Below, in pieces: positions 19,220-45,268 of a DNA stretch of 64,000 bases. Every line of letters begins with the position of its first letter. The stretch's first letter is position 1. Made by a program: the position numbers and the translations under genes. Below the pieces are notes generated by a model that was not told the DNA's origin, searched no databases, and saw only the letters and a list, made by a program, of their open reading frames with translations. The DNA comes from Streptomyces sp. PH10-H1 (lineage in GTDB: Bacteria; Actinomycetota; Actinomycetes; Streptomycetales; Streptomycetaceae): assembly GCF_030063355.1 (NCBI RefSeq), contig NZ_JASISZ010000018.1:14656-78655 (forward strand). The letters are read 5' to 3'.

Positions 19220-19420
19220 CGCGACCCGAGCGGGATCGAGCGCGGCCACGCGCGGTAGCGGTGGTCCATGGGAGGCGGCCGTGACGTCTTCCCGTACTGC
19301 GCCGGGTCTGCGAGGCCCGTTCCCGGCACATCCTGTCCGCCTGCGTGGATAGCCTGGGTCCGTCGGTGGCGTGCGGGGGACCCGCGCCGTCCCGAAGAGC
19401 TGTGGGAGTGGGTGCCAGGA

Positions 19421-22360
19421 GTGGGTACGGTAGCGAAGGCTGCCCCGTCGGCAGAGCCCGAGTCGGCGGTTCCGGACCGGGAGCGGCTGTTTGCGCGGGT
19501 GCCTGAACTCGCCGCAGGCGAGGCGGTGTTCCTTCCCGCTGATCCGCCTCGGATGGGGCGGGTGGCGTTCTGGAGTCCCGGTGGTGAGCCGCCGGACCTC
19601 GGGGTGGAACCCGAGGAGCTCACCGTTGTCCGCCCGCACGGCTCATCCGTGCGCCGTGCCCGTGTGATCGCCGTACCGCTTCCGGTGGAGCAGGCGCTGC
19701 CGTTGCTGACCCGCTGCCGGGCGCTCGGTGCGGACGGCAGTGAGCAGGCGTCGGCCGCCAACACTTCGGCCAACGCCTCGGGCAGCACGGCGTTCTGGGG
19801 TGCGGCTGCCCTGCTGGGCTTGCGTCTGATCGCCCGGGGCCGGTTGCTGCCCGGGGTTTCGCCGGAGGGTTTCGACGCGTGGCGGGTCGGCCCGCTGGAC
19901 GCCGAGGACCACGAGCGGCTGGGTTCCCTGGCCGCAGCCATGCCTCCCGAGGCCCGCGCGGTCGCGGTCCCCGGAACCTCCCCGCTTACGCTTCCGGCGG
20001 GCGAGCCGCTGCTGCGGGCCTTCCTGGACGCCGTGGCCGACTCCCTCGCCCGCCCTCCCGCCGCCCGCCTGGTGACTGGCGGACCGGCATTCGCGGTCCG
20101 TGCACCGCAGCCCGTGCCCGAGCAGCGGGGCTGGGCGGCGGAGGTCGCCGCCGGCCGCGACGCCGGCCTGGCGGTGTCGCTGCGGCTGGAACTGGGCCGC
20201 GCGGAGTCCTTCCGGGCCGTGGTCCAGCTGCGCAGCCTGGCCGACCCCACGGTGCTCGCCGACGCCGCGGACCTGTGGTCGGGGCGGGCCACCGCTCCCG
20301 AACACTTCGGTCCACGGGCTCAGGTGGACACGCTGCTGACGTTGCGGCGGGCCGCCCGCGTCTGGCCCCCGGCCGGACGGCTGCTGGACGCGGCTGCCCC
20401 GACCGGCCTGGAACTGTCCGACGAGGAGGCCCAGGAACTGCTGGGCGACGCGGCGGAAAGCCTCGCTGCCGCCGGGGTCGCCGTGCACTGGCCCAAGGAG
20501 CTGGTACGCGAGCTGACGGCCTCCGGAGTCCTGGAACCCGTACGGCGAAAGGGGACTCAGTCCTCGGCCGAGTCCTTCCTGTCCTCCGGCGGGCTGCTGG
20601 ACTTCCGCTGGCGGGTCGCACTCGGAGACCAGGAACTTGACCAGGAGGAGCTGGAACGGCTGGTCCAGGCGCACCGGCCGATCGTGCGGCTGCGCGACCA
20701 GTGGGTGGTCGTGGACCCGGAACTGGTCCGCCGACTGCGCCGGGCCGCGCAGTCCAGGAGGACGTCGCTGACCGCGATCGACGCCCTGGGAGCCGCGCTG
20801 ACCGGCAGCGTCGAGGTGGACGGCGAACAGGTGGCGGTCACCGCGGGCGGCGTACTGGAGGAGCTGCGCTCCCGGATCGCCGACGACCCCGAGGCCCGTG
20901 CCGAGCGCGAGCCCCAGGGGCCGCCTCAAGCACTGGCCGCGACCCTGCGCGACTACCAGCTGCGCGGCCTGAACTGGCTGCACCGGATGACCTCGCTCGG
21001 CTTGGGGGGCTGCCTCGCCGACGACATGGGCCTGGGCAAGACCGTCACCCTGATCGCACTCCACCTGCGCCGCCAGGAAGGGAAAACCACCGCCGGCCCG
21101 ACCCTGGTGGTCTGCCCCGCCTCACTGCTCGGCAACTGGGAGCGCGAGATCCAGCGCTTCGCACCCGCCACCCCCGTACGCCGCTTCCACGGCCCCGGCC
21201 GCGACCTGGCCGGTCTCGACGCCGGAGCGGACGGCGGCTTCGTCCTGACCACCTACGGGACCATGCGCCGCGACGCCGAACGTCTCGCGGAGCAGCCCTG
21301 GGGACTGCTCGTCGCCGACGAGGCCCAGCACGTCAAGAACCCGCACGCGCACACCGCCCAGGCACTGCGCAGGATCCCCTCGCGGGGTCGGGTCGCGCTC
21401 ACAGGCACCCCGGTCGAGAACAACCTGTCCGAACTGTGGTCACTGCTCGACTGGACCACCCCCGGCCTCCTCGGCACGCTCACCTCCTTCCGCGACCGCT
21501 ACGCCACTGCCGTCGAAGGCGACCGCGACGAACAGGCTGCTCGTCGGCTGGCCGCGCTGGTCCGCCCCTTCCTGCTGCGCCGGCGCAAGTCCGACCCCGG
21601 CATCGCACCCGAACTGCCGCCCAAGACCGAGACCGACCAGCCGGTGTCGCTGACGAAGGAACAGGTCTCGCTGTACGAGGCGCTGGTACGCGAACTCATG
21701 GCCGAGATCGAGGAGAAACAGGGCATCGCCCGGCGCGGCCTGGTGATGAAGCTCCTCACCGGCCTCAAGCAGGTCTGCAACCACCCCGCGCAGTTCCTGA
21801 AGGAAGCCGCGGGCGCCAAGCTTCCGGGCCGCTCGGGGAAGCTGGAACTCCTGGACGAACTCCTGGACACCGTCCTGGCCGAGGACGGGTCGGCCCTGGT
21901 CTTCACCCAGTACGTGGCCATGGGCGCGCTGATCGAACGTCACTTGGCCGACCGGGGCGTGGACACCCTGTTCCTGCACGGAGGCACCACGGTCAAACGC
22001 CGCGAGGAGATGGTCGACGCCTTCCAGCGCGGTGAGAAGAAGGTGTTCCTGCTCTCCCTCAAAGCCGCCGGGACCGGCCTGAACCTGACCCGGGCGGGAC
22101 ACGTCATCCACTACGACCGCTGGTGGAACCCGGCCGTGGAGGACCAGGCCACCGACCGGGCCTACCGGATCGGACAGACCCAGCCGGTCCAAGTGCACAA
22201 GCTGATCGCAGAGGGGACCGTGGAGGACCGGATCGCCGAGATGCTCCGCCAGAAGCGGGAACTGGCCGACTCGGTGCTCGGTTCGGGCGAGGCGGCGTTC
22301 AGCGAACTGAGCGACAGCGAACTGGCCGAACTGGTCACGCTGCGAAGGACAGAACGATGA
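19421..22360 (+). CDS. SNF2-family DEAD/DEAH-like helicase
   Basis: 979 residues if started at the GTG at 19421, which is behind GGAG; an open extension to an ATG at 19268 (1030 residues) is possible but its extra part lacks conservation signs. An N-terminal bacterial SNF2-associated region is followed by the motor: DDMGLGKT at about 534-541, DEAQ near 633, TGTPVENNLSELWSLL, and the second RecA fold with GGTTVKRREEMVDAFQ and RAYRIGQTQPVQVHKL. A dsDNA translocase rather than a strand-separating helicase. It overlaps the SWIM gene by 4 bp; such SNF2-SWIM pairs recur in actinobacteria, with function unknown. Confidence 0.9.
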   Translation: MGTVAKAAPSAEPESAVPDRERLFARVPELAAGEAVFLPADPPRMGRVAFWSPGGEPPDLGVEPEELTVVRPHGSSVRRARVIAVPLPVEQALPLLTRCRALGADGSEQASAANTSANASGSTAFWGAAALLGLRLIARGRLLPGVSPEGFDAWRVGPLDAEDHERLGSLAAAMPPEARAVAVPGTSPLTLPAGEPLLRAFLDAVADSLARPPAARLVTGGPAFAVRAPQPVPEQRGWAAEVAAGRDAGLAVSLRLELGRAESFRAVVQLRSLADPTVLADAADLWSGRATAPEHFGPRAQVDTLLTLRRAARVWPPAGRLLDAAAPTGLELSDEEAQELLGDAAESLAAAGVAVHWPKELVRELTASGVLEPVRRKGTQSSAESFLSSGGLLDFRWRVALGDQELDQEELERLVQAHRPIVRLRDQWVVVDPELVRRLRRAAQSRRTSLTAIDALGAALTGSVEVDGEQVAVTAGGVLEELRSRIADDPEARAEREPQGPPQALAATLRDYQLRGLNWLHRMTSLGLGGCLADDMGLGKTVTLIALHLRRQEGKTTAGPTLVVCPASLLGNWEREIQRFAPATPVRRFHGPGRDLAGLDAGADGGFVLTTYGTMRRDAERLAEQPWGLLVADEAQHVKNPHAHTAQALRRIPSRGRVALTGTPVENNLSELWSLLDWTTPGLLGTLTSFRDRYATAVEGDRDEQAARRLAALVRPFLLRRRKSDPGIAPELPPKTETDQPVSLTKEQVSLYEALVRELMAEIEEKQGIARRGLVMKLLTGLKQVCNHPAQFLKEAAGAKLPGRSGKLELLDELLDTVLAEDGSALVFTQYVAMGALIERHLADRGVDTLFLHGGTTVKRREEMVDAFQRGEKKVFLLSLKAAGTGLNLTRAGHVIHYDRWWNPAVEDQATDRAYRIGQTQPVQVHKLIAEGTVEDRIAEMLRQKRELADSVLGSGEAAFSELSDSELAELVTLRRTER

Positions 22361-24346: not shown

Positions 24347-25234
24347 GAGCCCTTTCCAACCTCAGGTTGAGGCGTGGTGAAGGACGACGACGGCCTTCGC
24401 GATGTCGGTGACCCGGTTGGTGCTGCAGCGGAGCTCCCGCAGAAGGCGCCAGCCTTTCAGGGTGGTCATGGCCTGTTCGCCGAGACAACGGATTTTGGCG
24501 TGGGTGGTGTTGTGTCGCCGCTTCCAGAGCTTGAGCCGGGGCCCCTGAACGGTACCCGGACGGGGCGCCCGGCACCCTGGTAAGCGTTGTCCGCCCAGCA
24601 CTTTACGTCGACCTCGGCAAGCGCGTCGATGATGCCGTGGCGCCGGGTGGGGGGCAGGTCATGGGTCGATCCGGGCAATGCCGGCGAGGTCCACAGCAGG
24701 CGGCCGAACGGGTCGGTGAGGACCCGGATGTTCACGCCGTGGCCTTTGTGTTTCCCGGAGTAGTACGGGGTGTCGGCGGCGATCCGGTCGCTCGGCAGCA
24801 GGGTTCCGTCCAGGATGACGAAGGCTTTCGCCCGTACGGTCTTCATCGCCTCTTCCAGGGTGGGCCCCGGCGGCCAGGACATCGATGGCCTCGGGTATGT
24901 GTCGGTACACGGTCGCGACGCCGATGCCGAACCCTGTGGCGAGCTGCGCGTAGTTGTCCCCGCACCGAAGGTGGGTGAGGGCGAGCAGGGCCTGACGGCC
25001 GACAGGCAGCCGTCGCCACCGGGTCCCGATCTCTCGCTGCCGGGCGCGGAGCCGCGCTGTCAGGTAGCGCCGGGTGCCGCTGGACAGATCGATCGACGAC
25101 GGGTAAACAAGCACGCGAAGCTCCTGGCGGACACGGGCGATCTTGGTCGAGGACCCGTCTACCGGGGGCTTCGCCGTTCGGTACAGCCGACAACCTCCAA
25201 CACCGCAACGCCGCAGCAAGGTTGGAAAAGGCCC
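24347..25234. mobile_element. Degenerate IS5-family insertion sequence
   Basis: About 888 bp bounded by imperfect terminal inverted repeats: GAGCCCTTTCCAACC inward from 24347 and GGGCCTTTTCCAACC inward from 25234 on the other strand (13 of 15 match). The enclosed minus-strand transposase is broken by frameshifts. No clear target duplication could be read at the edges. Confidence 0.7.
24362..25114 (-). pseudogene. IS5-family DDE transposase, frameshifted
   Basis: Read on the minus strand the protein is spread over three frames. The first part (from a GTG at 25114) has the helix-turn-helix segment RRLPVGRQALLALTHLRCGDNYAQL and GIGVATVYRHI. The second frame (about 24880-24590) carries DDE motifs: FVILDGTLLPSDR, YYSGKHKGHGVNIRVLTDP and LPGSTHDL. 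The third frame (about 24601-24362) ends with LKLWKRRHNTTHAKIRCLGEQA. Two frame changes, near 24880 and 24590, mean no intact transposase is made unless by frameshifting at both sites, which is unlikely. Confidence 0.8.
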
Positions 25235-25399
25235 GCTGTCTCGCAGAGCACGAGTTTGCCAACGGTGGGTTGCCCGAAAGTGCGTTAGCTCCGTAGCTGG
25301 CGTGGTGGCCTCTCTGCAGGAAACTCCAGCGGGAAGCCGCCAGTTGTGAAAGGGCCATAGGGTGTCGAGACAGGGGCACGGGACATCGGGGAGGCGAGT

Positions 25400-28300
25400 A
25401 TGTCGGGGCCGTTTCAGCCAGGCTGGCGGGTGCGGCTGCCACATGGCCCGAGCGGCTGGCTGACCGTCGACTTCGCCCGCCCCGACGCCGCTGGCGGCTG
25501 GATCGTCTATGTGGCGCCGGACGGACAGAACAGTTTTACGAAAGTCGTGCTCACGGCGGACGAAGCCGCCCGTGCCGAGGTTTTGGCCCGCGACGGTGGC
25601 GGTTCCTCCGCCGCCGCCCTGGCCGGTATGTGGACCTGTTGGATGACCGCCGCTGCAGCGGACACGTCGGCGAGCTTGTTGTCGTCCTCCCCGTTACGGC
25701 CATACACCCACCAGATCAACGCTGTGTACGGGGCGATGCTGCCTCAACCCTGGCTGCGCTTTCTGCTAGCAGACGAACCAGGGACAGGGAAGACGGTAAT
25801 GGCCGGTCTGTACATGCGCGAGATGCAGCGCATCGGACTGATCCGGCGTGCGCTGGTTGTCGTACCTGCGGGTCTGGTCACCAAATGGCAGGCGGACTTC
25901 GAGCGGTTCTTTGGTGGTGGACTACGCCGGGTCACGGCTGCCACGGTACGGGAAGGTGCACTGGAGTTGGGGCACGACTTGTGGATCGTCTCCTTGGAAC
26001 TAGCTGCGGTTAACGCCGCCGTACAGGATGCGATCCGCCCCGACCTTGCAGGATGGGATCTTGTCGTCTTCGATGAGGCCCATCGGCTGACGGCCACGGC
26101 ACAGTCATTCCACCGGGTGGGACGACTACTGACGGGCACCAGCCCAAGGGCCCTCCTCATGACGGCCACCCCCCACCGTGGCTCGGAGTGGTTGTTCCGC
26201 CATCTGCTCCATCTGGTGGACCCCGAGGTCTATCCGGATCCGGGAGATGACTCCAAGCAGCCACTTACTCCCCTACGGCCTGGCAGCACTCACTTCCTGC
26301 GGCGTATGAAAGAGGACCTGGTCGACTACGACGGCGTCACGCGCCTGTTCAAGCGGCGTCACGCCACTAATCACAGGGTGCCGCTGGCCCCGGCTGAACT
26401 CGAGGCTTACACCCAGGCCCTGCAACTCGTCGACCAGTTCTTCCCAGCCACGGCCCGCCCGTTGGCACGGATGGTTTACGGCAAGCGGGCCGCGTCCAGC
26501 CTGTACGCACTGGCGGAGACACTGAAACGGCGATCGGCCAGTATGGGCGCCAAGTCGCAGGCCCAGGCGGCGGCGGACGCTGATCCCGAGGGGGATGACC
26601 AGGCCCTGCTTGAGGAGGCCCGCGTCGTCCACTCGGACTCCCGCTCCCCCCGGTCCGAGCGATCCGCGATCAGCCAACTGCTCGCTGGAATAACCGAGAT
26701 GCTTAGGAATCCGGAGTATGTTCCTTCGAAATGGCATGTGCTGGTGAATCAGTGTTTGGCGGCGAATGGGATATTGCCCGGTGGACGCCAACAAGCGGTT
26801 GTGTTCACCGAATACGCTGACTCCGCCGAATGGATCGCCCAGCGGCTCACCGACGACGGTTACCCTGCCCGCACCTATAGTGGTCGCCAGGCACACGTGG
26901 AACGGGACAAGGTCCGCGCGGCGTTCATGGCAGGGGACTTTCAAGTCATCGTTGCCACTGACGCGGGCAACGAGGGAATCGACCTTCAAGTCGCCCATGT
27001 CCTAGTGAATTTCGATATTCCCTGGTCGCTGGTGCGACTGGAACAACGAATGGGTCGAATTCATCGGGTCGGCCAGGAACGTGATGTCGAGCTGTACAAC
27101 TTGGTCGCTGTCGACACACGCGAGGGAGACACGCTGCACACGCTGCTGGAACGATTCGTCACGGCAGCGAATGAACTGGACGGGCAGATGTTCGACAGCC
27201 TGTCTCTTGTGGCCGAACTTTCAGCGGTCCCTTACGAAGACTGGCTGAGGACGCTGTATGGCGACGACGAACTAAAGCAGGACGAGGTCCTGGCCGCTGT
27301 GCGTCGGGTGAGCGCCGCAGAGCTGAAGCGCCGAGCTGAAGCCGTACGCGGTCAGGAGGCGGAACTCGCCTCCGCCGTCGATGTGGCGGCCGGACTGGCT
27401 CGCCTGCGGCAACAGTCGCTGGAGGGGATCCATCCGGTAGTCGTGGGAGCCTACATACGACGGCTGGCGCAAGCGGGGGTCCTGCGGGCCAGTCACACCG
27501 CCGCAGGAGAAGACGTCATGCTCATCGAGGCAGTTGACGCCCTGCCTCAGACCATGGGCGGGTCTCGGCAGGCTCTGGTGTCGATTGGCGGCGCGGCCCC
27601 GCACGAGATCTTGGACGCCGAGGGGCAAATACAGGGTCCACAACCTGTGTCGCTAGGCCACGGAACCCCAGCCCTCGCGGAACTGGTCGCCCACTGTGAA
27701 CAGATACTGGTTCCGGATGTGTACCGTGGCGGGACCGTCGAGGACCCTGCGGCCACGAGTCCGTACGAGCTCATGGTCTTCGCGTCGGCTGTGTACTCGG
27801 CCGCCTCACCGGTCCGTACCCCTTGGTTCAGGCTGATACGTGCGGATCCCACCGGTGAGACCCGAGGGGTCCGCTGGGAGATCCTGGCCGGCCTGGCCGC
27901 CACCGATCACGCCGCTGGGCGTCCCGATCCTCTCGTTGCTGAGGTCGCGGAGAGCGAAGCACGACGCCTTCTCGCTCAAGTAATCGCTGAGCAGAAACGG
28001 ACACGCAGAGATTGGTATGCCGCGGCCAAACGTGACCTCAGCAATCTGCCGGTCGATGTGACCCTCGACATCCCGGACCGTGGTGAACGACTTGCTTTGC
28101 GGGACCGGCTTACGGCCGCATCTGAGCGCAGGCTTGCGCAGCTGGAAGAGCTCTGCCAGGTGGAAGCGGAGCCGCCCCGACTCCTCGCCCGGCTTCAAGT
28201 GGTGCCAGGACAGGATGGAGCCTCACCTCATCGTCGTCAGGCGGAGGCTGTTGCAGCCGATCACGTGCGCAGGCTGCTGGAAGGCCGCGGTTGGACGGTG

Positions 28301-28654
28301 GATGACGTACGAGCCGAAAGCCGTGGCTTTCAGTTGTGTGCCCTGCGAGGGCAGGAGCGCCGGATGGCGCTGGTCAAGGGTGTCTGGCGAAGTATCGACG
28401 ATGAGGACATACGGCTACACGAAAACGAGTTGCTGATGTCGGCCCAGCACCGCTCCGATTACGTGCTCTACGTGGTCGAGTCCTGCCACGACGGCGTCGG
28501 GCAACTGTTCGCATCTTTCCGGGATCCTTTTGACGTCTTGACCGCTGGTCTTCATCCTGAACCGGTCGTCCGGCTGTCTGGCGACATACTGCGATCCGCC
28601 CGCAAGGCAACGTCCGTCGTTGACGGTTCCTTTCCTGACCAGGAGACACTATGA
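25400..28654 (+). CDS. SNF2-type helicase with DUF3883-like C-terminus, putative defence protein
   Basis: 1084 residues from an ATG behind GGGGAGG. Motor domains: LADEPGTGKT at about 123-132, FDEAHRLT, TATPHRGSEWLFRHLLHLVDP, and the second fold with YSGRQAHVERDKVRAAF and QRMGRIHRVGQERDVELYNLV. This architecture matches the DrmD/COG0553 helicases of defence loci. The C-terminal about 120 residues resemble DUF3883, a restriction-endonuclease-like fold, but the expected acidic residues are replaced (Gln978 in GFQL, Leu991 before V-K993-G), so it may bind rather than cut DNA. Overlaps the methylase gene by 4 bp. Confidence 0.85.
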   Translation: MSGPFQPGWRVRLPHGPSGWLTVDFARPDAAGGWIVYVAPDGQNSFTKVVLTADEAARAEVLARDGGGSSAAALAGMWTCWMTAAAADTSASLLSSSPLRPYTHQINAVYGAMLPQPWLRFLLADEPGTGKTVMAGLYMREMQRIGLIRRALVVVPAGLVTKWQADFERFFGGGLRRVTAATVREGALELGHDLWIVSLELAAVNAAVQDAIRPDLAGWDLVVFDEAHRLTATAQSFHRVGRLLTGTSPRALLMTATPHRGSEWLFRHLLHLVDPEVYPDPGDDSKQPLTPLRPGSTHFLRRMKEDLVDYDGVTRLFKRRHATNHRVPLAPAELEAYTQALQLVDQFFPATARPLARMVYGKRAASSLYALAETLKRRSASMGAKSQAQAAADADPEGDDQALLEEARVVHSDSRSPRSERSAISQLLAGITEMLRNPEYVPSKWHVLVNQCLAANGILPGGRQQAVVFTEYADSAEWIAQRLTDDGYPARTYSGRQAHVERDKVRAAFMAGDFQVIVATDAGNEGIDLQVAHVLVNFDIPWSLVRLEQRMGRIHRVGQERDVELYNLVAVDTREGDTLHTLLERFVTAANELDGQMFDSLSLVAELSAVPYEDWLRTLYGDDELKQDEVLAAVRRVSAAELKRRAEAVRGQEAELASAVDVAAGLARLRQQSLEGIHPVVVGAYIRRLAQAGVLRASHTAAGEDVMLIEAVDALPQTMGGSRQALVSIGGAAPHEILDAEGQIQGPQPVSLGHGTPALAELVAHCEQILVPDVYRGGTVEDPAATSPYELMVFASAVYSAASPVRTPWFRLIRADPTGETRGVRWEILAGLAATDHAAGRPDPLVAEVAESEARRLLAQVIAEQKRTRRDWYAAAKRDLSNLPVDVTLDIPDRGERLALRDRLTAASERRLAQLEELCQVEAEPPRLLARLQVVPGQDGASPHRRQAEAVAADHVRRLLEGRGWTVDDVRAESRGFQLCALRGQERRMALVKGVWRSIDDEDIRLHENELLMSAQHRSDYVLYVVESCHDGVGQLFASFRDPFDVLTAGLHPEPVVRLSGDILRSARKATSVVDGSFPDQETL

Positions 28655-31410
28655 CCCGCATGATCGAACGCTGGTTTCCCTGTGCCGAGGTGAGCGACGC
28701 GTCGATGGTCGGGTGGGGAAGCGGGAACACGGAAGCGAGTCTCTGGGTGTGGTTCGCGAAGCGGCCGACCGCCCAGGCCAAGGCTGCCGTGTTGACCAGC
28801 CTGTTGCCGTGGCCGGAAGATAAGGCCGAGCAGCGAAAACTTCAGGATGCGGTCAGAGAGGTGCTCACCGCCAACACCCCCGCCAGGGTACGAACAGCAA
28901 ACATGATGGGCGGTGCTGTATCCGTGATTCGAGCGCACCTTCAGGTAACCCATCCTGAAGGTGCCAGAGTGCTCGACCCGTTCTCCGGGCGAGCCGTAAT
29001 CCCGTTGGAGGCGGGGAGGCTCGGGGTGCATGCGGAAGGCATCGACTACTCACCGTTCGCTGTTCTTGGCGGATCACTGTTGGCAGACCTCCCCTTCCAG
29101 GACTGGAACGACGAGCCGCCGCTCCCTTTCCATGGTGGCGGACAGGGCCAGGCCGAAGGTCGACTGGAACAGGATGTCGATGCGTTTTTGAACGAGGTCG
29201 GCCAGCGGTTCGTCGAGAGCATGGCCGATTTCTACCCGAAGCACTCGGGCGCCTACCCTTGGGGTTACTTGTGGGCATCGACCCTACCGTGCCAGGAATG
29301 TGGTCACCGCTTTCCGCTGGTCGGCGAACTGCGCTTGCGCCTTCCCCGGGAAGCGACCAGAACGCGCCCTGAGGACCTGGGTCAGAGTTTCTTCATCGAC
29401 GCTGATCCACGTAACGGCGAATTTCGCGCAGTTGTGCACGAGGGCGAGCCCAAGGGCACACCGACCCGGGTCTTCACAGGCAGGAGTAAGTACGCCTCAG
29501 ACGGGAGGGTCGCCGTCTGCCCGTTCTGCGAACACGTCCACTCGAAGGCGGTCCACACCCGGCTCAGCGCCGAGGGCTTGCGACGTGACGTCCTCCTGGT
29601 GGCGGCGGACATCGCGGAGGATGGCACCAAGGTCTTCCGTGAACCATTGGAGCAGGAGTACGAGGCTGCGGAGCGGGCCGAGCGGGCGTTGAGGGAAGAG
29701 CCGCCATTCGGGCCGCTGAGCGCTCGGCCGGATGAGCGGATACCCGCAGGGAACACGTGGACCATCAAGTCCGTCAACTATGGGGACAAGACTTACGGTG
29801 ATCTCGTGCCGGCACGTCAGTCTCTGGGGCTGATCCGTCTCGCACGTGCGGTGAACGGGCTTGCCGAGAAATGTCTCCAGGCGGGTCTCTCACCTGCGTA
29901 TGTACGAGCTCTCAGCGGTTACGCAACTGCCGCGATGATGCGCAAGATGCGTACGTCGTCCCGCGGCGCTCGCCTTCAAATTGGTAGCAGTGTCAAGGTC
30001 GGGGATGTCTTCGTCGCCCAGGCGGCGATCCTGCACTCCTACGACTGGTTCGAGAGCGGCCTCTCCGAGGGTCCGGGTTCCTGGGCATCCCTTGCCAAGA
30101 AGACAGTTTCTACGCTTCACCACGTAAGGAAGCGGGGGGTGGCTCGCCCGGCAGAGATCCACCGCGGGAGCGCGACGATGCTCCCTCACAGAGACGCATC
30201 GTTCAGCGCAGTCGTCACGGACCCCCCATACGACGACATGATCGACTACAGCGATTCCAGTGACCTTTTCTACGTCTGGGCCAAGCGGGCCATGTTCACC
30301 GCGGATTCCTCCCTCACCATGACGATGCATCCGGATGGCGTTCAGGAGAAGGACGAGGAGATCATTGTCAAGCGTGGTGGCAGTCAGGCAGGCGACCATC
30401 GGACCCTGCAGCACTACGACACCATGATCTGCCGTGCGTACCGGGAGATGCGCCGGGTGGTCGCCGCGGACGGCGTGGTCACCATCGTCTTCGGCCACGG
30501 CGACGTCGAGGTGTGGGAGCGCATGCTGCGCGCCCTCCACGAGGCCGGACTCGTCATCACCGCCTCCTGGCCAGCCAAGACCGAGGCGGGAGGCGCTGGC
30601 GCCGGTGCGTTGAATATTGTTACGACCGTCACAATGGCATGCAGACCAGCGAAACCCGATCGTGGCCGTGGAGACCTCATGGCCGTGGAGAGCAGGATCA
30701 AAGAGGCCATCAGGGAACGCATGCGCCTGTGGGAGAGTTCCGATCTTGCCCGCGACGACATGATGATGGCAGCGGTGGGGCCTGCGATGGAGATCGCCGG
30801 ACAGTACGAGAGCATCAGCGACAACACGGGAAAACCGGTCGAGTTGCTCACTCTGCTCGCGACCGCGCAGAAAGCGGTCCAGGAAGTAACCCTGAACCGC
30901 ATCGATTCCGTGCCGCTCGAACTTTTCGATGAGCGTACAAAGTTCGCGCTGTGGTGGATCGGCCTCCACCAACGGCGTCAGGTGGCCAAATCCGAACTGC
31001 GCTGGCAAGGACTGAGGTCCGGACTCGCCCTCGCCGAGTTGAAGACCTTGGTGAAGCAGGACAAAAAGGGCTGCTGCTTCGTTCTGTCCAGCCAGGTCAG
31101 TCCGGTCATCGATGACAAGTCCGCGGTGATCGACATTGCGTTGGCCATGGCGAAGGCATGGAAGGGAGGCGCCGACGACGTCGCGGAGGTGCTGGTGGCT
31201 GCGGGTCGTGAAGGTGACGACGAGCAACTCTGGGCGACCATCACGTTCCTGATCGAGAAGCTGCCCGAAGCAGACCCTGATGCCCTTGCCTGGACGGCTC
31301 TTGTCAGGGTGCGTCGTCCCATCGAGTCGGCCACGCACTCGGCGCATGAGACCAGGACGGCCGAATCTCGCCACATACAGCGGGAGGACATGCAAAGTCG
31401 CTTGTTCTAG
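28651..31410 (+). CDS. DUF1156 adenine-specific DNA methylase
   Basis: 919 residues, ATGA-coupled to the helicase. N-terminal DUF1156 region (WFPCAEVSDAS... WVWFAKRPTAQAKAAVLTSLLP), SAM-binding motif DPFSGRAVIPLEAGRLG, a zinc-ribbon pair Cys214/Cys217 and Cys290/Cys293 (CQECGH, CPFCEH), and the catalytic motif DPPY at 524-527 followed by DSSDLFYVWAKRA. These are the marks of COG1743-type N6-adenine methylases found in defence islands. The last 250 residues are helical and unassigned. Likely marks host DNA as self. Confidence 0.9.
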   Translation: MTRMIERWFPCAEVSDASMVGWGSGNTEASLWVWFAKRPTAQAKAAVLTSLLPWPEDKAEQRKLQDAVREVLTANTPARVRTANMMGGAVSVIRAHLQVTHPEGARVLDPFSGRAVIPLEAGRLGVHAEGIDYSPFAVLGGSLLADLPFQDWNDEPPLPFHGGGQGQAEGRLEQDVDAFLNEVGQRFVESMADFYPKHSGAYPWGYLWASTLPCQECGHRFPLVGELRLRLPREATRTRPEDLGQSFFIDADPRNGEFRAVVHEGEPKGTPTRVFTGRSKYASDGRVAVCPFCEHVHSKAVHTRLSAEGLRRDVLLVAADIAEDGTKVFREPLEQEYEAAERAERALREEPPFGPLSARPDERIPAGNTWTIKSVNYGDKTYGDLVPARQSLGLIRLARAVNGLAEKCLQAGLSPAYVRALSGYATAAMMRKMRTSSRGARLQIGSSVKVGDVFVAQAAILHSYDWFESGLSEGPGSWASLAKKTVSTLHHVRKRGVARPAEIHRGSATMLPHRDASFSAVVTDPPYDDMIDYSDSSDLFYVWAKRAMFTADSSLTMTMHPDGVQEKDEEIIVKRGGSQAGDHRTLQHYDTMICRAYREMRRVVAADGVVTIVFGHGDVEVWERMLRALHEAGLVITASWPAKTEAGGAGAGALNIVTTVTMACRPAKPDRGRGDLMAVESRIKEAIRERMRLWESSDLARDDMMMAAVGPAMEIAGQYESISDNTGKPVELLTLLATAQKAVQEVTLNRIDSVPLELFDERTKFALWWIGLHQRRQVAKSELRWQGLRSGLALAELKTLVKQDKKGCCFVLSSQVSPVIDDKSAVIDIALAMAKAWKGGADDVAEVLVAAGREGDDEQLWATITFLIEKLPEADPDALAWTALVRVRRPIESATHSAHETRTAESRHIQREDMQSRLF

Positions 31411-31490
31411 ACGGGAGTTCAGAGGCGGTCCGTGGTTGAATCTCGGTACCGATCAAGAAGAGTGCAACTGAACGGAACCGAGGGGGAACC

Positions 31491-34490
31491 GTGTCCGCGA
31501 CCGCGCCGACACCGTGGTGGGAAACGCTGAGGCTGCGGGAAGAGATCACTGATGCCTCGGGGGTGGCCAGCGACATTCAGGTCTCGCTGTACCGAGTGGC
31601 GTACGGTCAGGGCGCGAGCAGACCGCACTATGCGAGCGCAGCCACCTACGGCCAAGTCACGCACCCCACCTCCCAACTGGTTGAGTTGCTCACCCAGATC
31701 GCCATTCGGTTGGCAGGGGCCACGAAGTACACGTCCGCGCCGGCGCTGACCCGACTCGACCAGGGAATGGGCGGCGGCAAGTCGCACGCCTGCATAGGCG
31801 CCTGGCATCTGGCGAAGGACCCCGAGGCACTGGCCCAGGAGGACATCGGGCGCGAAGTCTTCGAACAGGCCAAGGCCGCGCTAGGCCAGGAGCTGCCACG
31901 AGACCTCAACAAGCCGCACGTGGTCGTGCTGTCGTGCGACAACATGGTCCCCGGCGCGACGGACGCTGAGCAGGACGGGCCGTGGGCCCACAATCTCTAT
32001 GAGCGGTTCCTTTGGAGGCTGTTCGACGGGCTAGACGATCGGGAGCCCCGTTACGACAGCTATCGGTCACATTTTTCCAGCAAGGCCAAGATCGGTGAGG
32101 CCATAGCATCGCTGGATCGCCCCGTGCTCATCATCATTGACGAAGTTCTCAACTACGTGGGCGACGGCTTGGAGGGCTGCGGGGACAAGCAGCTCATTGC
32201 GCAGGACATGGCCTTTCTCCGTGCGTTGACGGAAACGGTGAGCACTGCACCGCACGTGTCCATGCTGGTCGTGATGATCAATTCGGAGAAGGATCCGACC
32301 ACGCTTCAAGGAGAAGGGGAGGCGCGACGTCAGGACCTGCAGGCGTATCTGCAGCGTAACGGCCAGACGAAGCCGGTGAGCGAGAATGCCGACTTCACGG
32401 CCATCCTGCGCCGTCGGCTCTTCGCCAATTCCGCGGACAGGGCCGTCGACCTGGCCGCTCAGCAAGCGGCTGAGGCGTTTCGGCCGATCATGGAACAGGG
32501 CAACTGGAAAACGAGGGTTTTCGGAGCCCTCAGCGGTCCGTGGACGAGCCGATTCCCGGACGCTGTCGTGCGTTCGTACCCCTTCCATCCCCAGTTGATG
32601 GATCTTGCTGAGCGGGAGTGGGCGAATCTCGCTGGCTTCCAACAGGTGAGATCAACAATCACGATCTTCGCCGCCACGGTGTACGCACTGACCGAACGCG
32701 CGAAGCGCGGCGAATGGGTACCGTCGCTCATTGGACCGGGAGACCTGCCGCTGTCGGACGGTATGGTACGCGATGCGGTCATCGGCTCCGGCCTGATATC
32801 CGATACCAAGACCCAGGGAAACTACCGCTCGATCGCGCAGAGCGACATCGTCGATCTGGAAGACAGCGGTGGTGCCGCGCGCCAGCTCGATGTAAGCCGC
32901 GTCGGTGCGCCGTGGGCGCAGAGCAACCCCCGCGCTGCCGAACGTGCCGCTACGTTCATCTACCTAGCGTCCATCGTCGGAACACGCGGTGGCTCGCGCC
33001 GAGGCGCGTCCGACCCCGAGGCCAAGGTGGCCACGGTCGTGCCCGACCCCGGCTATGACTACGCGGAGGCGGATGCCGTCGTACGGGCTCTCACCAACGT
33101 CGACGACGCTGGTCTTGCCACGGTCGAGATTTTCGAGGGCAGGGGCGGCCAGCCACGGCGCTACTACCTTTCGACACGGCAACGCCTCCCCATGTTGCTG
33201 CGGGCCATGCGTAACTCCGTGACCGATGAGGACCGAGATGAGGCCGTCGCCAAGTACGCCAAGGAGATGCTGACGCCGGGGCCGTTTGCCAAGACCCGTT
33301 TCATACACGCCGACACCAGTCATAGCCACCGTGCTCTCCTGGTTGAGGCCGAGATCGACGAGGCACGCACGACTCGGCTGATCGCGCTTGATCCGGCGAT
33401 GTACACCGTTGGCAACGGCACACAGAAGGCCACCCTCGAAGCGGTACAAGCGGTGCTCGGACTCGGACCAGACCGGATTCCGGTGGCGTGGGCATCCTCT
33501 GCAATCTTCACCGTAGCTTCAGCCCGCGGCCGTACTCAGGCTCGCAGAGCAGCGGTCGAGTATCTGGCGATCGAGCGGGTGCTGGAGGGACCTGAAGCCG
33601 AAGCGGATGAGGACATCGCCCTGGAGGCCACGGCGAGGCGAGACGACGAGCTCCGTCGGCTCAAAGACAGTGTTCGTAGGGCCTTCCAGCACGTGATTTA
33701 TCTGGCCCAGCCGGATCCCACCGTGGAGCGCGAGGTCATCCAGCGCAATCTGGAGCAGGGCACTCTTGACGGAGGCGTGGTATGGGAGGCACTGGCCGTC
33801 GCCCAGAAGGCTTTCCGGCCAGATGAGTTCACGGGCACCGCCCTCCGGCATAACCTGCGCGATAGCGATTACGACCGCCGTCCCCTGGCGGAGATACGGG
33901 ATTCGTTCTGGGATACGCCGCGGCTGGGACTGCTCCCCGGTGACGGGACTGAAGCGTTGCGGCAGGCCATATACCGGGCGGTGAGCGACGGAGAACTCCG
34001 GATCGTACGGCAGGGCGGAGAGCCCGTCGTCGTTGATGCTCTCACCGGGATCAACTTTAACGCCCCGACCTATCGGCTCGCCAAACCCGTGCCCTCTCCC
34101 ACCAAGGCACAGGAATCAGAGGACAAAGGCGAGCAGGGAGAAACCGGTGATTCTGAGCGCGTAGGGGGAACTAACGCGTCAGGTGACCCAGGTTCGCATT
34201 TTGCTACTGATTCTGTGGGCGGCGTGCGAGCTAGGCCCGGTGCCTCCGCTGATGGTCCCAGGGCTGTGGAGCAGCAGGTTGCCTTCACCGTGATGAAGAA
34301 CCTCATCAGCGAGCCAGACTCTGCCGACAAGTTGGCCCAGCTCTTCAGAAAGCTCTTCGATCTCCTGGACCGCGGTGTGATCTCGTATCTGTCCTCCACG
34401 CTCCAGGTCACCATGCCGTCCGAACAGGCCAGTGAGGTCAGGGAACTGGCGCAGAGCCTTGGCATCGCTGTCTCTATCCGTGATCGCTGA
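31491..34490 (+). CDS. DUF499 AAA+ ATPase of the defence module
   Basis: 999 residues from a GTG behind GAGGGGGA. Walker A QGMGGGKSH at about 91-99 and Walker B VLIIIDEVLNY near 205-215, in the order typical of DUF499/COG1483 proteins. The C-terminal third contains a possible DNA-binding segment and a Gly/Asp-rich linker before a short helical end (VAFTVMKNLISEPDSADKLAQLF). DUF499 and DUF1156 genes are commonly adjacent in defence islands. The ATPase is remotely like BrxC/PglY of BREX. The stop overlaps the convergent NACHT gene by 17 bp. Confidence 0.88.
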   Translation: MSATAPTPWWETLRLREEITDASGVASDIQVSLYRVAYGQGASRPHYASAATYGQVTHPTSQLVELLTQIAIRLAGATKYTSAPALTRLDQGMGGGKSHACIGAWHLAKDPEALAQEDIGREVFEQAKAALGQELPRDLNKPHVVVLSCDNMVPGATDAEQDGPWAHNLYERFLWRLFDGLDDREPRYDSYRSHFSSKAKIGEAIASLDRPVLIIIDEVLNYVGDGLEGCGDKQLIAQDMAFLRALTETVSTAPHVSMLVVMINSEKDPTTLQGEGEARRQDLQAYLQRNGQTKPVSENADFTAILRRRLFANSADRAVDLAAQQAAEAFRPIMEQGNWKTRVFGALSGPWTSRFPDAVVRSYPFHPQLMDLAEREWANLAGFQQVRSTITIFAATVYALTERAKRGEWVPSLIGPGDLPLSDGMVRDAVIGSGLISDTKTQGNYRSIAQSDIVDLEDSGGAARQLDVSRVGAPWAQSNPRAAERAATFIYLASIVGTRGGSRRGASDPEAKVATVVPDPGYDYAEADAVVRALTNVDDAGLATVEIFEGRGGQPRRYYLSTRQRLPMLLRAMRNSVTDEDRDEAVAKYAKEMLTPGPFAKTRFIHADTSHSHRALLVEAEIDEARTTRLIALDPAMYTVGNGTQKATLEAVQAVLGLGPDRIPVAWASSAIFTVASARGRTQARRAAVEYLAIERVLEGPEAEADEDIALEATARRDDELRRLKDSVRRAFQHVIYLAQPDPTVEREVIQRNLEQGTLDGGVVWEALAVAQKAFRPDEFTGTALRHNLRDSDYDRRPLAEIRDSFWDTPRLGLLPGDGTEALRQAIYRAVSDGELRIVRQGGEPVVVDALTGINFNAPTYRLAKPVPSPTKAQESEDKGEQGETGDSERVGGTNASGDPGSHFATDSVGGVRARPGASADGPRAVEQQVAFTVMKNLISEPDSADKLAQLFRKLFDLLDRGVISYLSSTLQVTMPSEQASEVRELAQSLGIAVSIRDR

Positions 34491-37398
34491 TGATAGGCAT
34501 GGAGATCCGTTGACCCACGGGCCGGCGTTCCAGCCAGAGCCCTAGGATGCGACGCAGAAGACTCGCGATAGGCCAGTGCTCGAGTCCTAGAGCATCTACA
34601 ACACCGATGAGCGTTTTCAGCACCTGTTGATCTTCAAAAGGCGCGTCTAGCAAAGAAAGATCCGGAAGGTGACGGTGGTCCACCTTGATGACGCGACCAC
34701 CGTCTGTCTCTTGGCGCCAAATGCCTGCTTCTGCCAGCGCCTCGACTGCCTTACGGGTAAGCTGCCTCTCACGCTGATCGAGGTTTTTATTGTTTAGCAG
34801 CGGATTCAACACGGCACTCAGCGCCACCGGCTCGCTGCTCTGTCTCTGCGGCTCGTATTCCCGGAAGGCGGACAGCCGGAAGTTCACCGGCAGACAGGCA
34901 ACGGCTTGCTGTCGTTCTCGACCGGCGGACCGCAGGGTCGCGACTCCTTGCCTCAGCCAGGACCTGGCTTTGCCAGCAAGAGTGCCGGTGCCGGTTGCCC
35001 ACGTGGCACAGACGATGAGAACGCTGAGCGTGGCGGTTCCCGCTGATGCCAGTGCGTCGGATATCTCCGCTTCCACCAGCTCGGATGCCGTCGGATTCTG
35101 AGCCATGACGCCCGCCAGTACGTCAGCGAGCGGGACAAGGTGCCGCCCGGGCGTCTTCCGTAGCAACTCAACAGCATGCTGCACGAGGAGCGTCTGATAT
35201 CGCGGGGAGGTCTCCGCGATCTGTTCCTGCAGCAGGTCAACGGCCAGATGCGCGGCAGGAGTGATAGCCCTGCTGAGGGCATCGCTCACGTCGGCGGAGC
35301 GCATCTGGGACAGCACATCCCCTCGCAGGTGGGCGCGTTCCGAGAAGATCCGGCCTGCGGCGAGCAGCCAGGTGTTCCTCCAGTGCGCTGACGGAACCAC
35401 AGTCACCAGGTTTGCGATGACCTCTATGTCGGACGCGGATACCAGTGCCCTTGCTGCCATGAATTCCTGAAGACTGCGAATTTCAAAGCCGATGCCGCCC
35501 GCCGGCATTGGTGTCAGCAAAACCAGTCGCTGCGTAGCCAGGGACACAAGTCTTCCCGAGAGGATGTCCGCCTGGTCGGCGTCGTACTCTTCCTGCCGCA
35601 GGATGCGCGTTGCGAGCTGCCGCAGTTCTTTGTCGGACAGCGCAGCCTCGGCGTCACCTCTTTGCTCCGAACGCACCTGCAGCATGAGGCCGACTGCCTC
35701 CTGGAGGGAATCGACGTGAGTCTTGTGATGTTCGAGCAGTATTGCCGACCCGGTGGCCTTCGCCACTTCTCGGGCGAACAACGTCTCGTAGTAGCCCTTG
35801 AACAGGTCGTAGCGATGCTGCGGTGCCGTGGGCCGACGCTCAAGAAGCAGCGACATGATGGAGATCTGCAACGGCGAGCGCATCAGCCGTGACGTCCGCT
35901 GCTCTCTCGCCGCCTTCCGAACCCTGCCCAGGACCTGCTCCTGCTTGTCAGGATCGGAGGCGTGCCGTGCGCCAGCCAGCCGCTCGGCGTACTTGACCGC
36001 TTGATCTTCCTCAAGAGGGCACAGACTCAGGTATTCGTACTGGTCCGGATCGAATTCGTCCCCGTAGCCCTGAGGCCGTGTTGTTGCGATGGTCAGGAGA
36101 TCGGCGTCGCGTCGAGCAGCGTCGACCTGGAATTCCTTGATATGCCGTAGCAATACTTCCCGGAGCTGCTGATCAGCCACCTCGTCCAGTCCGTCGAGTA
36201 CCAGCAGCCAGGGCCATTTGCCCAGCCAGACGAGGAGTTGCTGCTCCGTTATAGTGGTCGGTGCCCGTTGGCTGACTTTCCTGGCGATGTAGCGAAGGAT
36301 CGTCATATTGGGGTCGGCGGCGAATTTGTCCGCGTACTGATCCAATCGGATGTGGAAGGGCCAGCGGCGTGCGACAGGCAGCTCGAGACCTGCTGAACCG
36401 AGAAACGCACCGGTGAACTCGCTGCAGAGGGAGCGAACTTCGGCTGGGAGTGACCGATCGGGAAGGTCTGCCAGCAGTGCCACACGGTAAATCTGGCAGA
36501 TTAGCTGAGCCAGGGTGGTTTTCCCTTGGCCTGGGCCTCCGAGGAGGACCAGGCGGTCGGATGTACTAGTGGCGTCTGGAGAGGCTGTTTCGTCTTCAGC
36601 GCGCAGACTTGGTCGCAGGATCCGGTTCCCGCGGGCGATGACGTACGCCGCGGTGTGGACTTCTGTCTCTTCACGGTCAAGACGGGCGGGGAGGTCGATG
36701 GCAACCCTATCAAGGCGCAGACGCTGGTCGTCGCTGTCGCCGGCCTGCCCGAGACGTACCCATCGTTCAGCCAGCAATTCCTTCGCGACATGCGACGACA
36801 GGGCGTCCTGGGCGCCGTCATCAACGCCACGTATGTAGTCGTGGAGGCGGGCTAGAACATCGCCCGGCGTAATCAAGCCGTAATATCTGCCGGCGACTTC
36901 GGGCTCACCGTCCAGCAACCGGCACAGCTGGTCGTAGTGCCATACGCGGTAGCCTTTCAGGCGGAGCCGAGGAGCGTATTCCTCAATCAGGGCGTTGACC
37001 GAGTCGATTCCACCGCTTCCCGGGTAGGGCGAGAGCACGACGTTGCTTACGGCTAGGAAGTAGTCGGGTCGGCGCCCACGTCCTGCGTTGGGATCGAGCC
37101 ACTTCTCGAACTCACTTTTGAGGTGGCCCTTCAGCCACGTCGTGTTACTCCCAGTATCCATGGGGCGGTAGCGGAACTTGGCCTGGATGACGCCGTACCC
37201 TTCCCACGGCCCGTCCGGGTCAGGATCGGGGAAGTCGACTTTTCCCTCGAACGTGGCCTCCCGGCCGCCATCGGCGCCATCGCCAAAGGCTTCGACACCC
37301 GGACCAAGCGTCCTGATGGCCAACGCTTGGGTCAAGTGTTCGAATTCTCGCTCGCCTAGTCGGTTGAGGTCATAGTCCACGGGACCATCCTCACCCAC
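34474..37398 (-). CDS. Mrr-like nuclease fused to a NACHT NTPase (Avs/bNACHT-like)
   Basis: 974 residues from an ATG. The N-terminal 170 residues look like a restriction-endonuclease fold: Asp40/Asp43 with GGREATF, then the Q-x-K motif Gln72-Ala-Lys74 in GVIQAKF. A linker leads to a STAND NTPase: Walker A GGPGQGKT at 287-294, Walker B LLVLDGLDEV at 398-407, then RPQGY and LCPLEE, typical NACHT. The C-terminal 400 residues are helical and would be the sensor. Related proteins (Avs, bNACHT) detect phage products and kill or cut. It is convergent with the methylase-ATPase operon and may be an independent second line. Confidence 0.85.
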   Translation of the reverse strand: MGEDGPVDYDLNRLGEREFEHLTQALAIRTLGPGVEAFGDGADGGREATFEGKVDFPDPDPDGPWEGYGVIQAKFRYRPMDTGSNTTWLKGHLKSEFEKWLDPNAGRGRRPDYFLAVSNVVLSPYPGSGGIDSVNALIEEYAPRLRLKGYRVWHYDQLCRLLDGEPEVAGRYYGLITPGDVLARLHDYIRGVDDGAQDALSSHVAKELLAERWVRLGQAGDSDDQRLRLDRVAIDLPARLDREETEVHTAAYVIARGNRILRPSLRAEDETASPDATSTSDRLVLLGGPGQGKTTLAQLICQIYRVALLADLPDRSLPAEVRSLCSEFTGAFLGSAGLELPVARRWPFHIRLDQYADKFAADPNMTILRYIARKVSQRAPTTITEQQLLVWLGKWPWLLVLDGLDEVADQQLREVLLRHIKEFQVDAARRDADLLTIATTRPQGYGDEFDPDQYEYLSLCPLEEDQAVKYAERLAGARHASDPDKQEQVLGRVRKAAREQRTSRLMRSPLQISIMSLLLERRPTAPQHRYDLFKGYYETLFAREVAKATGSAILLEHHKTHVDSLQEAVGLMLQVRSEQRGDAEAALSDKELRQLATRILRQEEYDADQADILSGRLVSLATQRLVLLTPMPAGGIGFEIRSLQEFMAARALVSASDIEVIANLVTVVPSAHWRNTWLLAAGRIFSERAHLRGDVLSQMRSADVSDALSRAITPAAHLAVDLLQEQIAETSPRYQTLLVQHAVELLRKTPGRHLVPLADVLAGVMAQNPTASELVEAEISDALASAGTATLSVLIVCATWATGTGTLAGKARSWLRQGVATLRSAGRERQQAVACLPVNFRLSAFREYEPQRQSSEPVALSAVLNPLLNNKNLDQRERQLTRKAVEALAEAGIWRQETDGGRVIKVDHRHLPDLSLLDAPFEDQQVLKTLIGVVDALGLEHWPIASLLRRILGLWLERRPVGQRISMPIISDHG

Positions 37399-41092: not shown

Positions 41093-42343
41093 ATGCCTCG
41101 TACCAGCACGATCCTCGGCAAAAGCCACCTCGTCATCGACACCGGCGTGGCCACACCGGGCGCGACGACCATCGTGGAACGCAAGGGCCTGGGACACCCG
41201 GACACCCTGGCCGACCATCTCGCGGAGCGGCTGTCGCGCGCTTACAGCCGTTACACGGTCGACCACTTCGGCGCCGTGCTCCACCACAACTTCGACAAGC
41301 TCGCCCTCCTCGGCGGAGCCAGCGAAGTCCGATACGGGGGAGGCCGGATGACTTCTCCCGTGCGGGTCCTGGTCAACGGACGAGCCGCACCGATGTGCGG
41401 AGGTGAGTCCATCCCGGTCACGGAGATCGTCGAGGCGGAAGTGAGGTCCTTCTTCGCCGAGCGGCTCCCCGAGGTCTCGGACAGCCTCGACATCGTCTTC
41501 AACATCACCAGCAATTCCAGCCCGGGTGCCGTGCTCACCGGTGACGAGATACCGGACCGGACCCGGTGGTTCAGCCCGCGCTCCATCGACGACCTGCGCG
41601 AGCGGCGCGTGAGGCTCTCGAACGACACGTCTCTTGGCACCGGCTGGGCACCGGAGAATTCCTTCGAGTCGTTCGTGAGGGAGCTGGTCGACCACTTCTC
41701 CGGGGATAGCGACTTCACCCGCGCCCACGCCTGGTGCGGTTCGGACGTGAAGCTCATGGGGTACTGGGATGGTGAATGCGCGGATGTCGTGCTGTGTGTC
41801 CCCCAGAAGTCCCGCCAGGTCGGCAGCCGAGGGCAGTACGTCCGCAACGCAGAGACCGTACTGGTCGAGTGCCATCGCCTGGCTGGCGTCCGCCTGCCTG
41901 GCGCCGAAGCTCGTTTCCGCCTGAACGCCCGTGACGTCCCGGACAAGGACGAGCTGTACCTCACCTATACGGGCAGCTCCATCGAGTCCGGTGACGAGGG
42001 CGTCGTCGGCCGGGGCAACCGCGTCAATGGGCTGATCACGCCGCTGCGGCCGATGAATCTGGAGGGGGCGAACGGTAAGAACCCCGTTTACCACGTCGGC
42101 AAGCTGTACAACATCGCCGCTCAACGGCTCGCTCTCCGGCTCCATGAGGCGACTGCGGGCTACGCGGAAGTGCACCTGGTCAGCACCACGGGCCAGCGCC
42201 TCGACGAGCCCTGGCGCATCCTCGTCCGCCTCTCCGCTGCCGACGCCGAGCTCGACAAGGTGCAGGCCCTGGTCGCCGAGATTCTCACCGAGTTCCCGGC
42301 CCTCACAGACGAGCTGGTCTCCGGCGGAATCGTGCTGAGTTGA
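41093..42343 (+). CDS. Archaeal-type methionine adenosyltransferase
   Basis: 416 residues from an ATG behind GAAAGGGAG. The sequence follows PF01941, not the bacterial Met[33 protein letters not shown], the GGGRM loop, [21 protein letters not shown], and [13 protein letters not shown]. Makes S-adenosylmethionine (or an analogue) from ATP and methionine. A core bacterial metK is expected elsewhere, so this copy is probably dedicated to the pathway. Its stop overlaps the next start by one base. Confidence 0.9.
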
Positions 42344-43269: not shown

Positions 43270-43982
43270 TCTCCTACATCGTTCGCCATGGCCAGACGAA
43301 CTACAGCAAGCGCTACCTCGTCAATGGCGACCCGGCCAAGCCCATCCAGCTCAACGACGAAGGCCGGCAGTCCTTGAGCCGTGCCTGGGCGACCCTGCCT
43401 CTGCATGCTGTGGCGACGTGGCTGGCCAGCGAATTCCCACGAGCCCAGCAGACGGCATTCCTGCTGATGGGCGTTCCGGCGGCCGAACTGGTCGTCGACG
43501 CTCGGTTGAATGAACTCGACTACGGGAAATTCGAGAGCAGCCCGTTTCTGGAATACGCGGTATGGCTCGACAGCCAGGGCGCGAGCCGACGTCCACCCGG
43601 TGCTACGGAATCGCAGAGCGAGGGCATCCGCAGGATGCTCTCAGGGGTCTTCGCCGCCTTGGAGCATCCCGGCCCTCGTGTACTCGTCGGCCACGGGCTG
43701 CTGGTATCTGTATTGCTATGGCACCAGGGCCGCTCTGCGAACGACCGCATGCCGTTGTTCTTCCCGGAGGCTCCATACGTCGAGCCGGTCGCCATACCCG
43801 ACGACGAGCTCCCGATCCTGATCACGACGCTGCTGGACGATCTTGACGCGAGTGCTCACCAAGAACCTGCCGGCGACGGTGGCGGGACGATATTGCGGAT
43901 CAGCGGAGGCTCGACGGTTGCTACCGTCGATTCTGCATCCCCATCCCGCTCGCTGGATAAAAAGGATCTTCCTCATGCATGA
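43266..43982 (+). CDS. Histidine phosphatase family protein
   Basis: 238 residues if started at the GTG at 43266 (GTGA overlap with the kinase stop, GGAG at 6 nt); an ATG at 43254 adds four residues. The RHG motif IVRHGQTN is right at the N-terminus, the second catalytic His is in VLVGHGLLVS, and the acid residue in RLNELDYGKFE. Phosphoglycerate-mutase-like fold. It probably removes a phosphate set by one of the kinases or acts on a phosphorylated intermediate. Ends inside the first codons of the SerRS gene. Confidence 0.88.
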   Translation: MISYIVRHGQTNYSKRYLVNGDPAKPIQLNDEGRQSLSRAWATLPLHAVATWLASEFPRAQQTAFLLMGVPAAELVVDARLNELDYGKFESSPFLEYAVWLDSQGASRRPPGATESQSEGIRRMLSGVFAALEHPGPRVLVGHGLLVSVLLWHQGRSANDRMPLFFPEAPYVEPVAIPDDELPILITTLLDDLDASAHQEPAGDGGGTILRISGGSTVATVDSASPSRSLDKKDLPHA

Positions 43983-45267: not shown

Positions 45268-45268
45268 C

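What the first reader, a model, noticed from the sequence alone, without database searches (positions are those of the whole stretch)
25400..34490. Helicase - DUF1156 methylase - DUF499 ATPase defence module without the usual DISARM or BREX partners
Three large coupled genes form a methylase-ATPase-translocase set. The helicase resembles DrmD and the ATPase is remotely like BrxC, but no DrmA, DrmB, DrmC, PglZ, BrxA or PglX-type gene is adjacent. It therefore looks like a minimal or separate restriction-like system, with the effector nuclease not evident.
Basis: partly seen in the sequence, partly recalled or inferred. Interest (0 to 1): 0.75.

Follow-up and report, generated by a model that had tools for sequence, protein, structure and literature searches.

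The report
Nuclease-dead Hma locus with NACHT partner
This is a copy of a known bacterial anti-virus module (Hma, also called Type-1 BREX-related) whose built-in DNA-cutting domain has lost its catalytic residues and which, in three distantly related bacteria, travels with a neighbouring immune-receptor-like (NACHT) gene that may supply the missing effector.

Summary
The three genes are real and intact: hmaA (25400-28654), hmaB (28651-31410), hmaC (31491-34490). The triplet is not new. It is Hma (PADLOC 2021), described in 2026 as the Type-1 DUF499-centred BREX-related system. Its usual effector is a PD-(D/E)XK nuclease at the C-terminus of the helicase. Two things here differ. First, that nuclease domain is present but has lost its catalytic acids (D to Q, E to L). 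Of 81 aligned homologues, 78 keep D-E-K; the three exceptions are the window, an Actinomadura and a Nocardia. Second, exactly these three carry a NACHT (STAND) gene tail-to-tail with hmaC (window 34474-37398, minus strand), stop ends overlapping by 14-26 nt. None of the other 63 surveyed loci with enough downstream sequence has it. The three form one clade in the HmaA and NACHT trees, share only these four genes, and the dead domain evolves fast while methylase, helicase and ATPase motifs stay intact. The NACHT effector domain is swapped: Mrr/Avs4-like nuclease in two, trypsin-like protease in Nocardia. I propose that this four-gene variant has handed its output to the NACHT protein. The linkage is shown; functional coupling is inferred and rests on one evolutionary event.

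The parts
25400..28654 (+). hmaA: SNF2/SF2 helicase, 1084 aa, ATP-binding and DEAH motifs intact
   Evidence: ORF; PADLOC HmaA 3.7e-82; motifs aligned
28241..28492 (+). C-terminal NOV_C / PD-(D/E)XK domain of HmaA (residues 948-1031), predicted catalytically dead
   Evidence: Pfam NOV_C 5.7e-06; AF2 pLDDT 91, Hjc-like fold Z 10.1; catalytic residues replaced
28331..28333 (+). codon CAG = Q978, where homologues have the catalytic Asp
28370..28372 (+). codon CTG = L991, where homologues have the catalytic Glu of E-x-K (K993 kept at 28376-28378)
28651..31410 (+). hmaB: DUF1156-type N6-adenine methyltransferase (by motif), 919 aa; motif I DPFSG 28975-28989, motif IV DPPY 30220-30231, four Cys of the zinc-finger insert kept
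31491..34490 (+). hmaC: DUF499 AAA+ ATPase, 999 aa, GTG start; Walker A 31764-31784, Walker B 32127-32144
34474..37398 (-). NACHT/STAND protein, 974 aa, tail-to-tail with hmaC; P-loop GGPGQGKT 36517-36540
   Evidence: ORF; NACHT 3.8e-06; conserved beside hmaC in L039 and L041
36817..37398 (-). N-terminal Mrr-like PD-(D/E)XK effector domain of the NACHT protein (invariant E20, D43, Q72-x-K74)
   Evidence: AF2 pLDDT 82; Avs4 N-terminus Z 10.0, AspBHI 8.3, MspJI 7.8
34474..34490. 17-nt overlap of the hmaC and NACHT stop ends (26 nt in L039, 14 nt in L041, from the ORF ends)

Best explanation
The locus is a four-gene variant of the Hma / Type-1 BREX-related restriction-like system. HmaB methylates adenines in a host sequence (inferred). 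HmaC (ATPase) and HmaA (SNF2 translocase) scan DNA and engage unmethylated invader DNA (inferred from the family). In the ordinary system the C-terminal PD-(D/E)XK domain of HmaA then cuts. Here that domain keeps its predicted fold but has lost its catalytic acids, so HmaABC probably cannot cut by itself. The output is instead carried by the convergent NACHT protein: recognition by, or an attack on, the HmaABC complex triggers NACHT oligomerisation and its N-terminal effector. That effector is an Mrr-like nuclease here and in Actinomadura, and a trypsin-like protease in Nocardia. Shown: family identity, loss of the catalytic residues, faster evolution of the dead domain, intact other motifs, conserved four-gene linkage, effector swap. 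Inferred: methylation target, absence of cleavage, and the link between HmaABC and NACHT.
For: PADLOC and NCBIfam hits for all three genes. Catalytic triplet D-E-K in 78 of 81 HmaA homologues; the only exceptions are the window (Q-L-K), L039 Actinomadura (D-T-L) and L041 Nocardia (D-V-K). Each window substitution needs two base changes from any Asp or Glu codon, so a single read error cannot explain either. The same three are the only loci with a convergent NACHT gene after hmaC: 2 of 65 surveyed loci with at least 2 kb downstream, plus the window. Loci outside the clade fetched afterwards have an intact nuclease and no NACHT, as predicted. Monophyly: HmaA without the nuclease domain, SH-aLRT 100; NACHT 99/99. 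Only these four genes are shared at the locus by the three regions. Relaxed constraint: window-L039 helicase core 77.5% but nuclease domain 47.3%, against a mean of 69.9% (minimum 54.2%) in intact pairs of 75-80% helicase identity. Methylase and ATPase motifs intact. Protease domain in L041: Trypsin_2 9.3e-10.
Against: The three loci form one clade, so the association is one evolutionary event, not three independent ones. NACHT relatives without Hma beside them occur on plasmids, so this protein family can probably work alone. The NACHT gene is on the opposite strand, so it is not co-transcribed. No experiment shows that HmaABC and NACHT interact. A backup or guard role fits the same data.
Confidence: 0.45

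Rival explanations
1. The NACHT protein is an independent Avs/bNACHT-type defence gene or a guard that backs up Hma (as PARIS is proposed to back up BREX). HmaABC itself restricts without cutting, as BREX is thought to do, by blocking replication through the ATPase and translocase.
For: NACHT relatives exist without Hma on Rhodococcus, Gordonia and Streptomyces plasmids. In Nocardia the NACHT effector is a protease, so it does not replace a nuclease like for like. Opposite strand. BREX-related systems often have backup effectors nearby (PMC12839542).
Against: Linkage is kept with overlapping stop ends in three families, and the NACHT copies beside Hma form their own clade. Loss of the built-in nuclease coincides with the partner.
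Confidence: 0.35
2. The system is decaying: Hma has become a solitary methylase remnant without defence function.
For: Both catalytic acids of the nuclease are lost and that domain evolves fast.
Against: All three ORFs are full length. Helicase, methylase and ATPase motifs are kept in three lineages that differ by about 30-44% in each protein. The dead domain is not deleted.
Confidence: 0.1
3. The HmaA nuclease is still active with a rearranged active site (migrated acidic residue).
For: Active-site migration is known in PD-(D/E)XK enzymes (general knowledge). K993 and E949 are kept. The fold is predicted with high confidence.
Against: The three members differ from each other at the site (Q-L-K, D-T-L, D-V-K), and the whole domain evolves faster.
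Confidence: 0.1

Closest known systems
Hma (HmaABC), PADLOC 2021, PMC8565338
   Same: Same three proteins in the same order; PADLOC Hma models are the best hits
   Different: Window copy has a degenerate HmaA nuclease and a conserved convergent NACHT gene. PADLOC called HmaB an m5C methylase; the TDPPY motif and the 2026 work point to N6-adenine
Type-1 DUF499-centred BREX-related (BR) system, PMC12839542
   Same: DUF499 ATPase, DUF1156 N6-methylase, SNF2 helicase with an extra C-terminal PD-(D/E)XK domain; no PglZ, DUF3780 or HKD nuclease seen
   Different: The paper reports an active C-terminal nuclease in 79% of taxa and nearby nucleases in the rest. Its main text mentions neither NACHT nor trypsin-like partners
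Type-3 BREX (BrxHII, BrxXI, BrxC)
   Same: Homologous three-protein core (PMC12839542)
   Different: No BrxA, BrxF or PglZ found among the scanned neighbours
DISARM DrmD
   Same: Related SNF2 helicase (7.5e-69)
   Different: 217.7 bits against a DrmD cut-off of 610; no DrmB or DrmC among the scanned neighbours
Avs4 / bacterial NACHT proteins (for the fourth gene)
   Same: N-terminal Mrr-like nuclease domain (Avs4 Z 10.0) followed by a NACHT-type NTPase and a C-terminal region
   Different: Tied to a restriction-like module; the effector domain is swapped for a protease in the Nocardia member

Membership tests
Hma (PADLOC) | HmaA, HmaB and HmaC encoded together | tested here: met
   each gene's best PADLOC hit is HmaA, HmaB or HmaC; adjacent
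Type-1 BR system | Tripartite core only: DUF499 ATPase, N6-MTase with DUF1156, SNF2 helicase | tested here: met
   (DUF1156 itself below the Pfam cut-off)
Type-1 BR system | C-terminal PD-(D/E)XK domain on the helicase (79% of taxa in the paper) | tested here: met
   NOV_C; Hjc-like fold
Type-1 BR system | That C-terminal domain is catalytically active (not universal in the paper) | tested here: not met
   Catalytic D and E replaced by Q and L; D-E-K in 78 of 81 homologues. Activity itself was not assayed
Type-1 BR system | N-terminal TUDOR domain on the helicase | not tested
   About 95 residues precede the helicase core, but their fold was not predicted
Type-2 BR system | HKD nuclease at the helicase N-terminus and a DUF3780 gene | tested here: not met
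   No HKD/PLD domain in HmaA by Pfam and no DUF3780 hit among the scanned neighbours
Type-3 BR system / BREX | PglZ gene in the locus | tested here: not met
   No PglZ hit in the scanned neighbouring genes
DISARM | DrmD equivalog score plus DrmA/B/C | tested here: not met
   217.7 of 610 bits; no DrmB/DrmC hit
Restriction-modification function | Adenine methylation of host and phage restriction | not testable with these tools
   needs methylome sequencing and phage plating
Avs/bNACHT (fourth gene) | Effector domain, NACHT/STAND NTPase, C-terminal sensor | tested here: inconclusive
   NACHT just above cut-off; Mrr-like N-terminus by fold; C-terminal part not modelled

The most novel reading that the evidence does not exclude
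A restriction-like DNA-scanning complex (HmaABC) has lost its own nuclease and become the sensor for a dedicated NLR-like (NACHT) protein whose effector domain is exchangeable between nuclease and protease: a direct coupling of self/non-self DNA methylation sensing to STAND signalling.
Probability: 0.3. Interest if true: 0.85.

Novelty: new variant of a known kind. Interest (0 to 1): 0.6.

Why it matters
Restriction-like systems are thought to carry their own scissors. A lineage that keeps the methylase, ATPase and translocase, disarms the scissors and keeps a NACHT receptor next door would show how DNA self-recognition can be rewired to a signalling effector, and that the effector can be exchanged (nuclease to protease). 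It also warns that defence-finding software calls these loci complete Hma systems although the primary effector is probably dead. The idea can be tested with four genes in a laboratory Streptomyces strain.

Tried and rejected
DISARM/DrmD identity was rejected (score well below cut-off). The first genome-contig scan with the single HmaC protein found nothing; the HmaA alignment gave 79 loci. A search for more clade members in 298 genomes of the window's family, 255 of L041's order, 300 of L039's family and 150 of L041's genus found only L039 and L041. NACHT in viral contigs: no relative by single sequence; 12 distant ones by alignment, used only for the structure model. No Hma homologue in the phage collection. 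PDB sequence search with the NACHT N-terminus gave nothing useful. A simple 'NACHT nuclease replaces the lost nuclease' reading was weakened, because the Nocardia copy carries a protease. L117 (Virgisporangium) has an Mrr-like nuclease gene about 6 kb away, but it is not the same protein and its HmaA is intact. The genome search failed once and was repeated.

Full report
OBSERVATION. The three ORFs exist as described: 25400-28654, 28651-31410 and 31491-34490, all +. The first two overlap by 4 nt, and 80 nt separate the second from the GTG start of the third. Pfam gives SNF2/Helicase_C, a weak N6_N4_Mtase/DUF1156 and DUF499. PADLOC gives HmaA 3.7e-82, HmaB 1.1e-35 and HmaC 7.1e-36 as the best hits.

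WHAT THE TRIPLET IS. It is a known system. Payne et al. named Hma in 2021 as a candidate system (1,638 instances, 26 phyla; PMC8565338). A 2026 study describes the same triplet as the Type-1 DUF499-centred BREX-related system, with a C-terminal PD-(D/E)XK nuclease on the helicase as primary effector, and cites an experiment showing that HmaA defends against phage (PMC12839542). The motif TDPPY and the 2026 paper favour N6-adenine methylation over the m5C originally proposed.

RELATED LOCI. An HmaA alignment brought 79 loci from GTDB genomes; plasmids and whole genomes gave more. The A-B-C order recurs throughout. Plasmid copies sit in Rhodococcus and Mycolicibacterium.

THE DEAD NUCLEASE. The C-terminal domain (residues 948-1031, NOV_C) is predicted with mean pLDDT 91 to have the PD-(D/E)XK fold; best matches are Hjc Holliday-junction resolvases (Foldseek E 0.012, probability 1.00; VIA Z 10.1, rmsd 3.4, 112 residues aligned). 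Of 81 aligned HmaA proteins (79 distinct), 78 have D, E and K at the three catalytic columns. The window has Q-L-K, Actinomadura L039 D-T-L, Nocardia L041 D-V-K. Each window change needs two base substitutions. All three have lost the Glu of E-x-K. The domain also evolves faster: window-L039 47.3% against 77.5% in the helicase core, and window-L041 39.7% against 74.7%; intact pairs at 75-80% and 70-75% helicase identity have a nuclease-domain minimum of 54.2% and 53.4%. Helicase, methylase and ATPase motifs are intact. The domain is retained full length, which suggests a structural or DNA-binding role (inference).

THE FOURTH GENE. Tail-to-tail with hmaC lies a 974-aa NACHT protein (34474-37398, -). 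Homologues at the same place, also tail-to-tail and overlapping hmaC, occur in L039 (49% identity) and L041 (41% over residues 200-965), and in none of the other 63 surveyed loci with at least 2 kb after hmaC. Comparing 38-64 kb around the three loci, only the four genes are shared at the locus. HmaA (without the nuclease domain) and NACHT trees both put the three together (SH-aLRT 100; 99/99). By pairwise identity HmaA, HmaB, HmaC and NACHT all place the window nearest to Actinomadura. This is what co-inheritance of a four-gene cassette, moving between three bacterial families, would give.

EFFECTOR SWAP. The window NACHT N-terminus is an Mrr-like PD-(D/E)XK domain: invariant E20, D43 and Q72-x-K74, model pLDDT 82, best match the N-terminus of Avs4 (Z 10.0, rmsd 3.9, 154 residues), then AspBHI 8.3 and MspJI 7.8; Foldseek alone gave only weak matches. 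The Nocardia member instead starts with a trypsin-like protease (Trypsin_2 9.3e-10, above the Pfam cut-off; His, Asp and Ser motifs visible).

MECHANISM. I think the most likely reading is that HmaABC still marks and recognises DNA but hands the response to the NACHT protein. The main rival is that NACHT is an autonomous or guard system beside an Hma that blocks phage without cutting. Solitary NACHT relatives on plasmids keep that rival strong. Because the three loci are one clade, the correlation between nuclease loss and NACHT partner counts as one event.

NOVELTY. The triplet is known; the nuclease-dead, NACHT-linked version was not found in the 2026 paper's main text (no 'NACHT', no 'trypsin'). 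Its supplementary tables could not be read, so an entry there cannot be excluded. I rate it a new variant of a known kind.

Noticed in passing
window 19268-22360 (+): SNF2 helicase with a DUF3670 domain, 3 kb upstream of hmaA; distant paralogue of the HmaA helicase core (26% over about 121 aa).
   Followed up: no
window 24659-25444 (-): Open frame with a DDE-transposase helix-turn-helix (HTH_Tnp_4) directly upstream of hmaA, overlapping its start; hints at a mobile element next to the module.
   Followed up: no
window 41093-47292 (+): Run of genes with an archaeal-type methionine adenosyltransferase, an aminoglycoside-kinase-like protein, a seryl-tRNA synthetase and a glycosyltransferase; looks like a biosynthetic cluster.
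   Followed up: no
L014 14932-23934: Rhodococcus rhodochrous GD02 plasmid copy of Hma is interrupted by two IS256 transposases, leaving a split hmaA and hmaB.
   Followed up: no
L152 1114-8693: Virgisporangium Hma is followed by GajB/GajA-like genes and an Mrr-like nuclease fusion, a defence island.
   Followed up: partly
L140-L149: Several IMG/VR contigs carry relatives of the nuclease-NACHT protein, so this receptor family also sits on predicted viral or provirus DNA.
   Followed up: no
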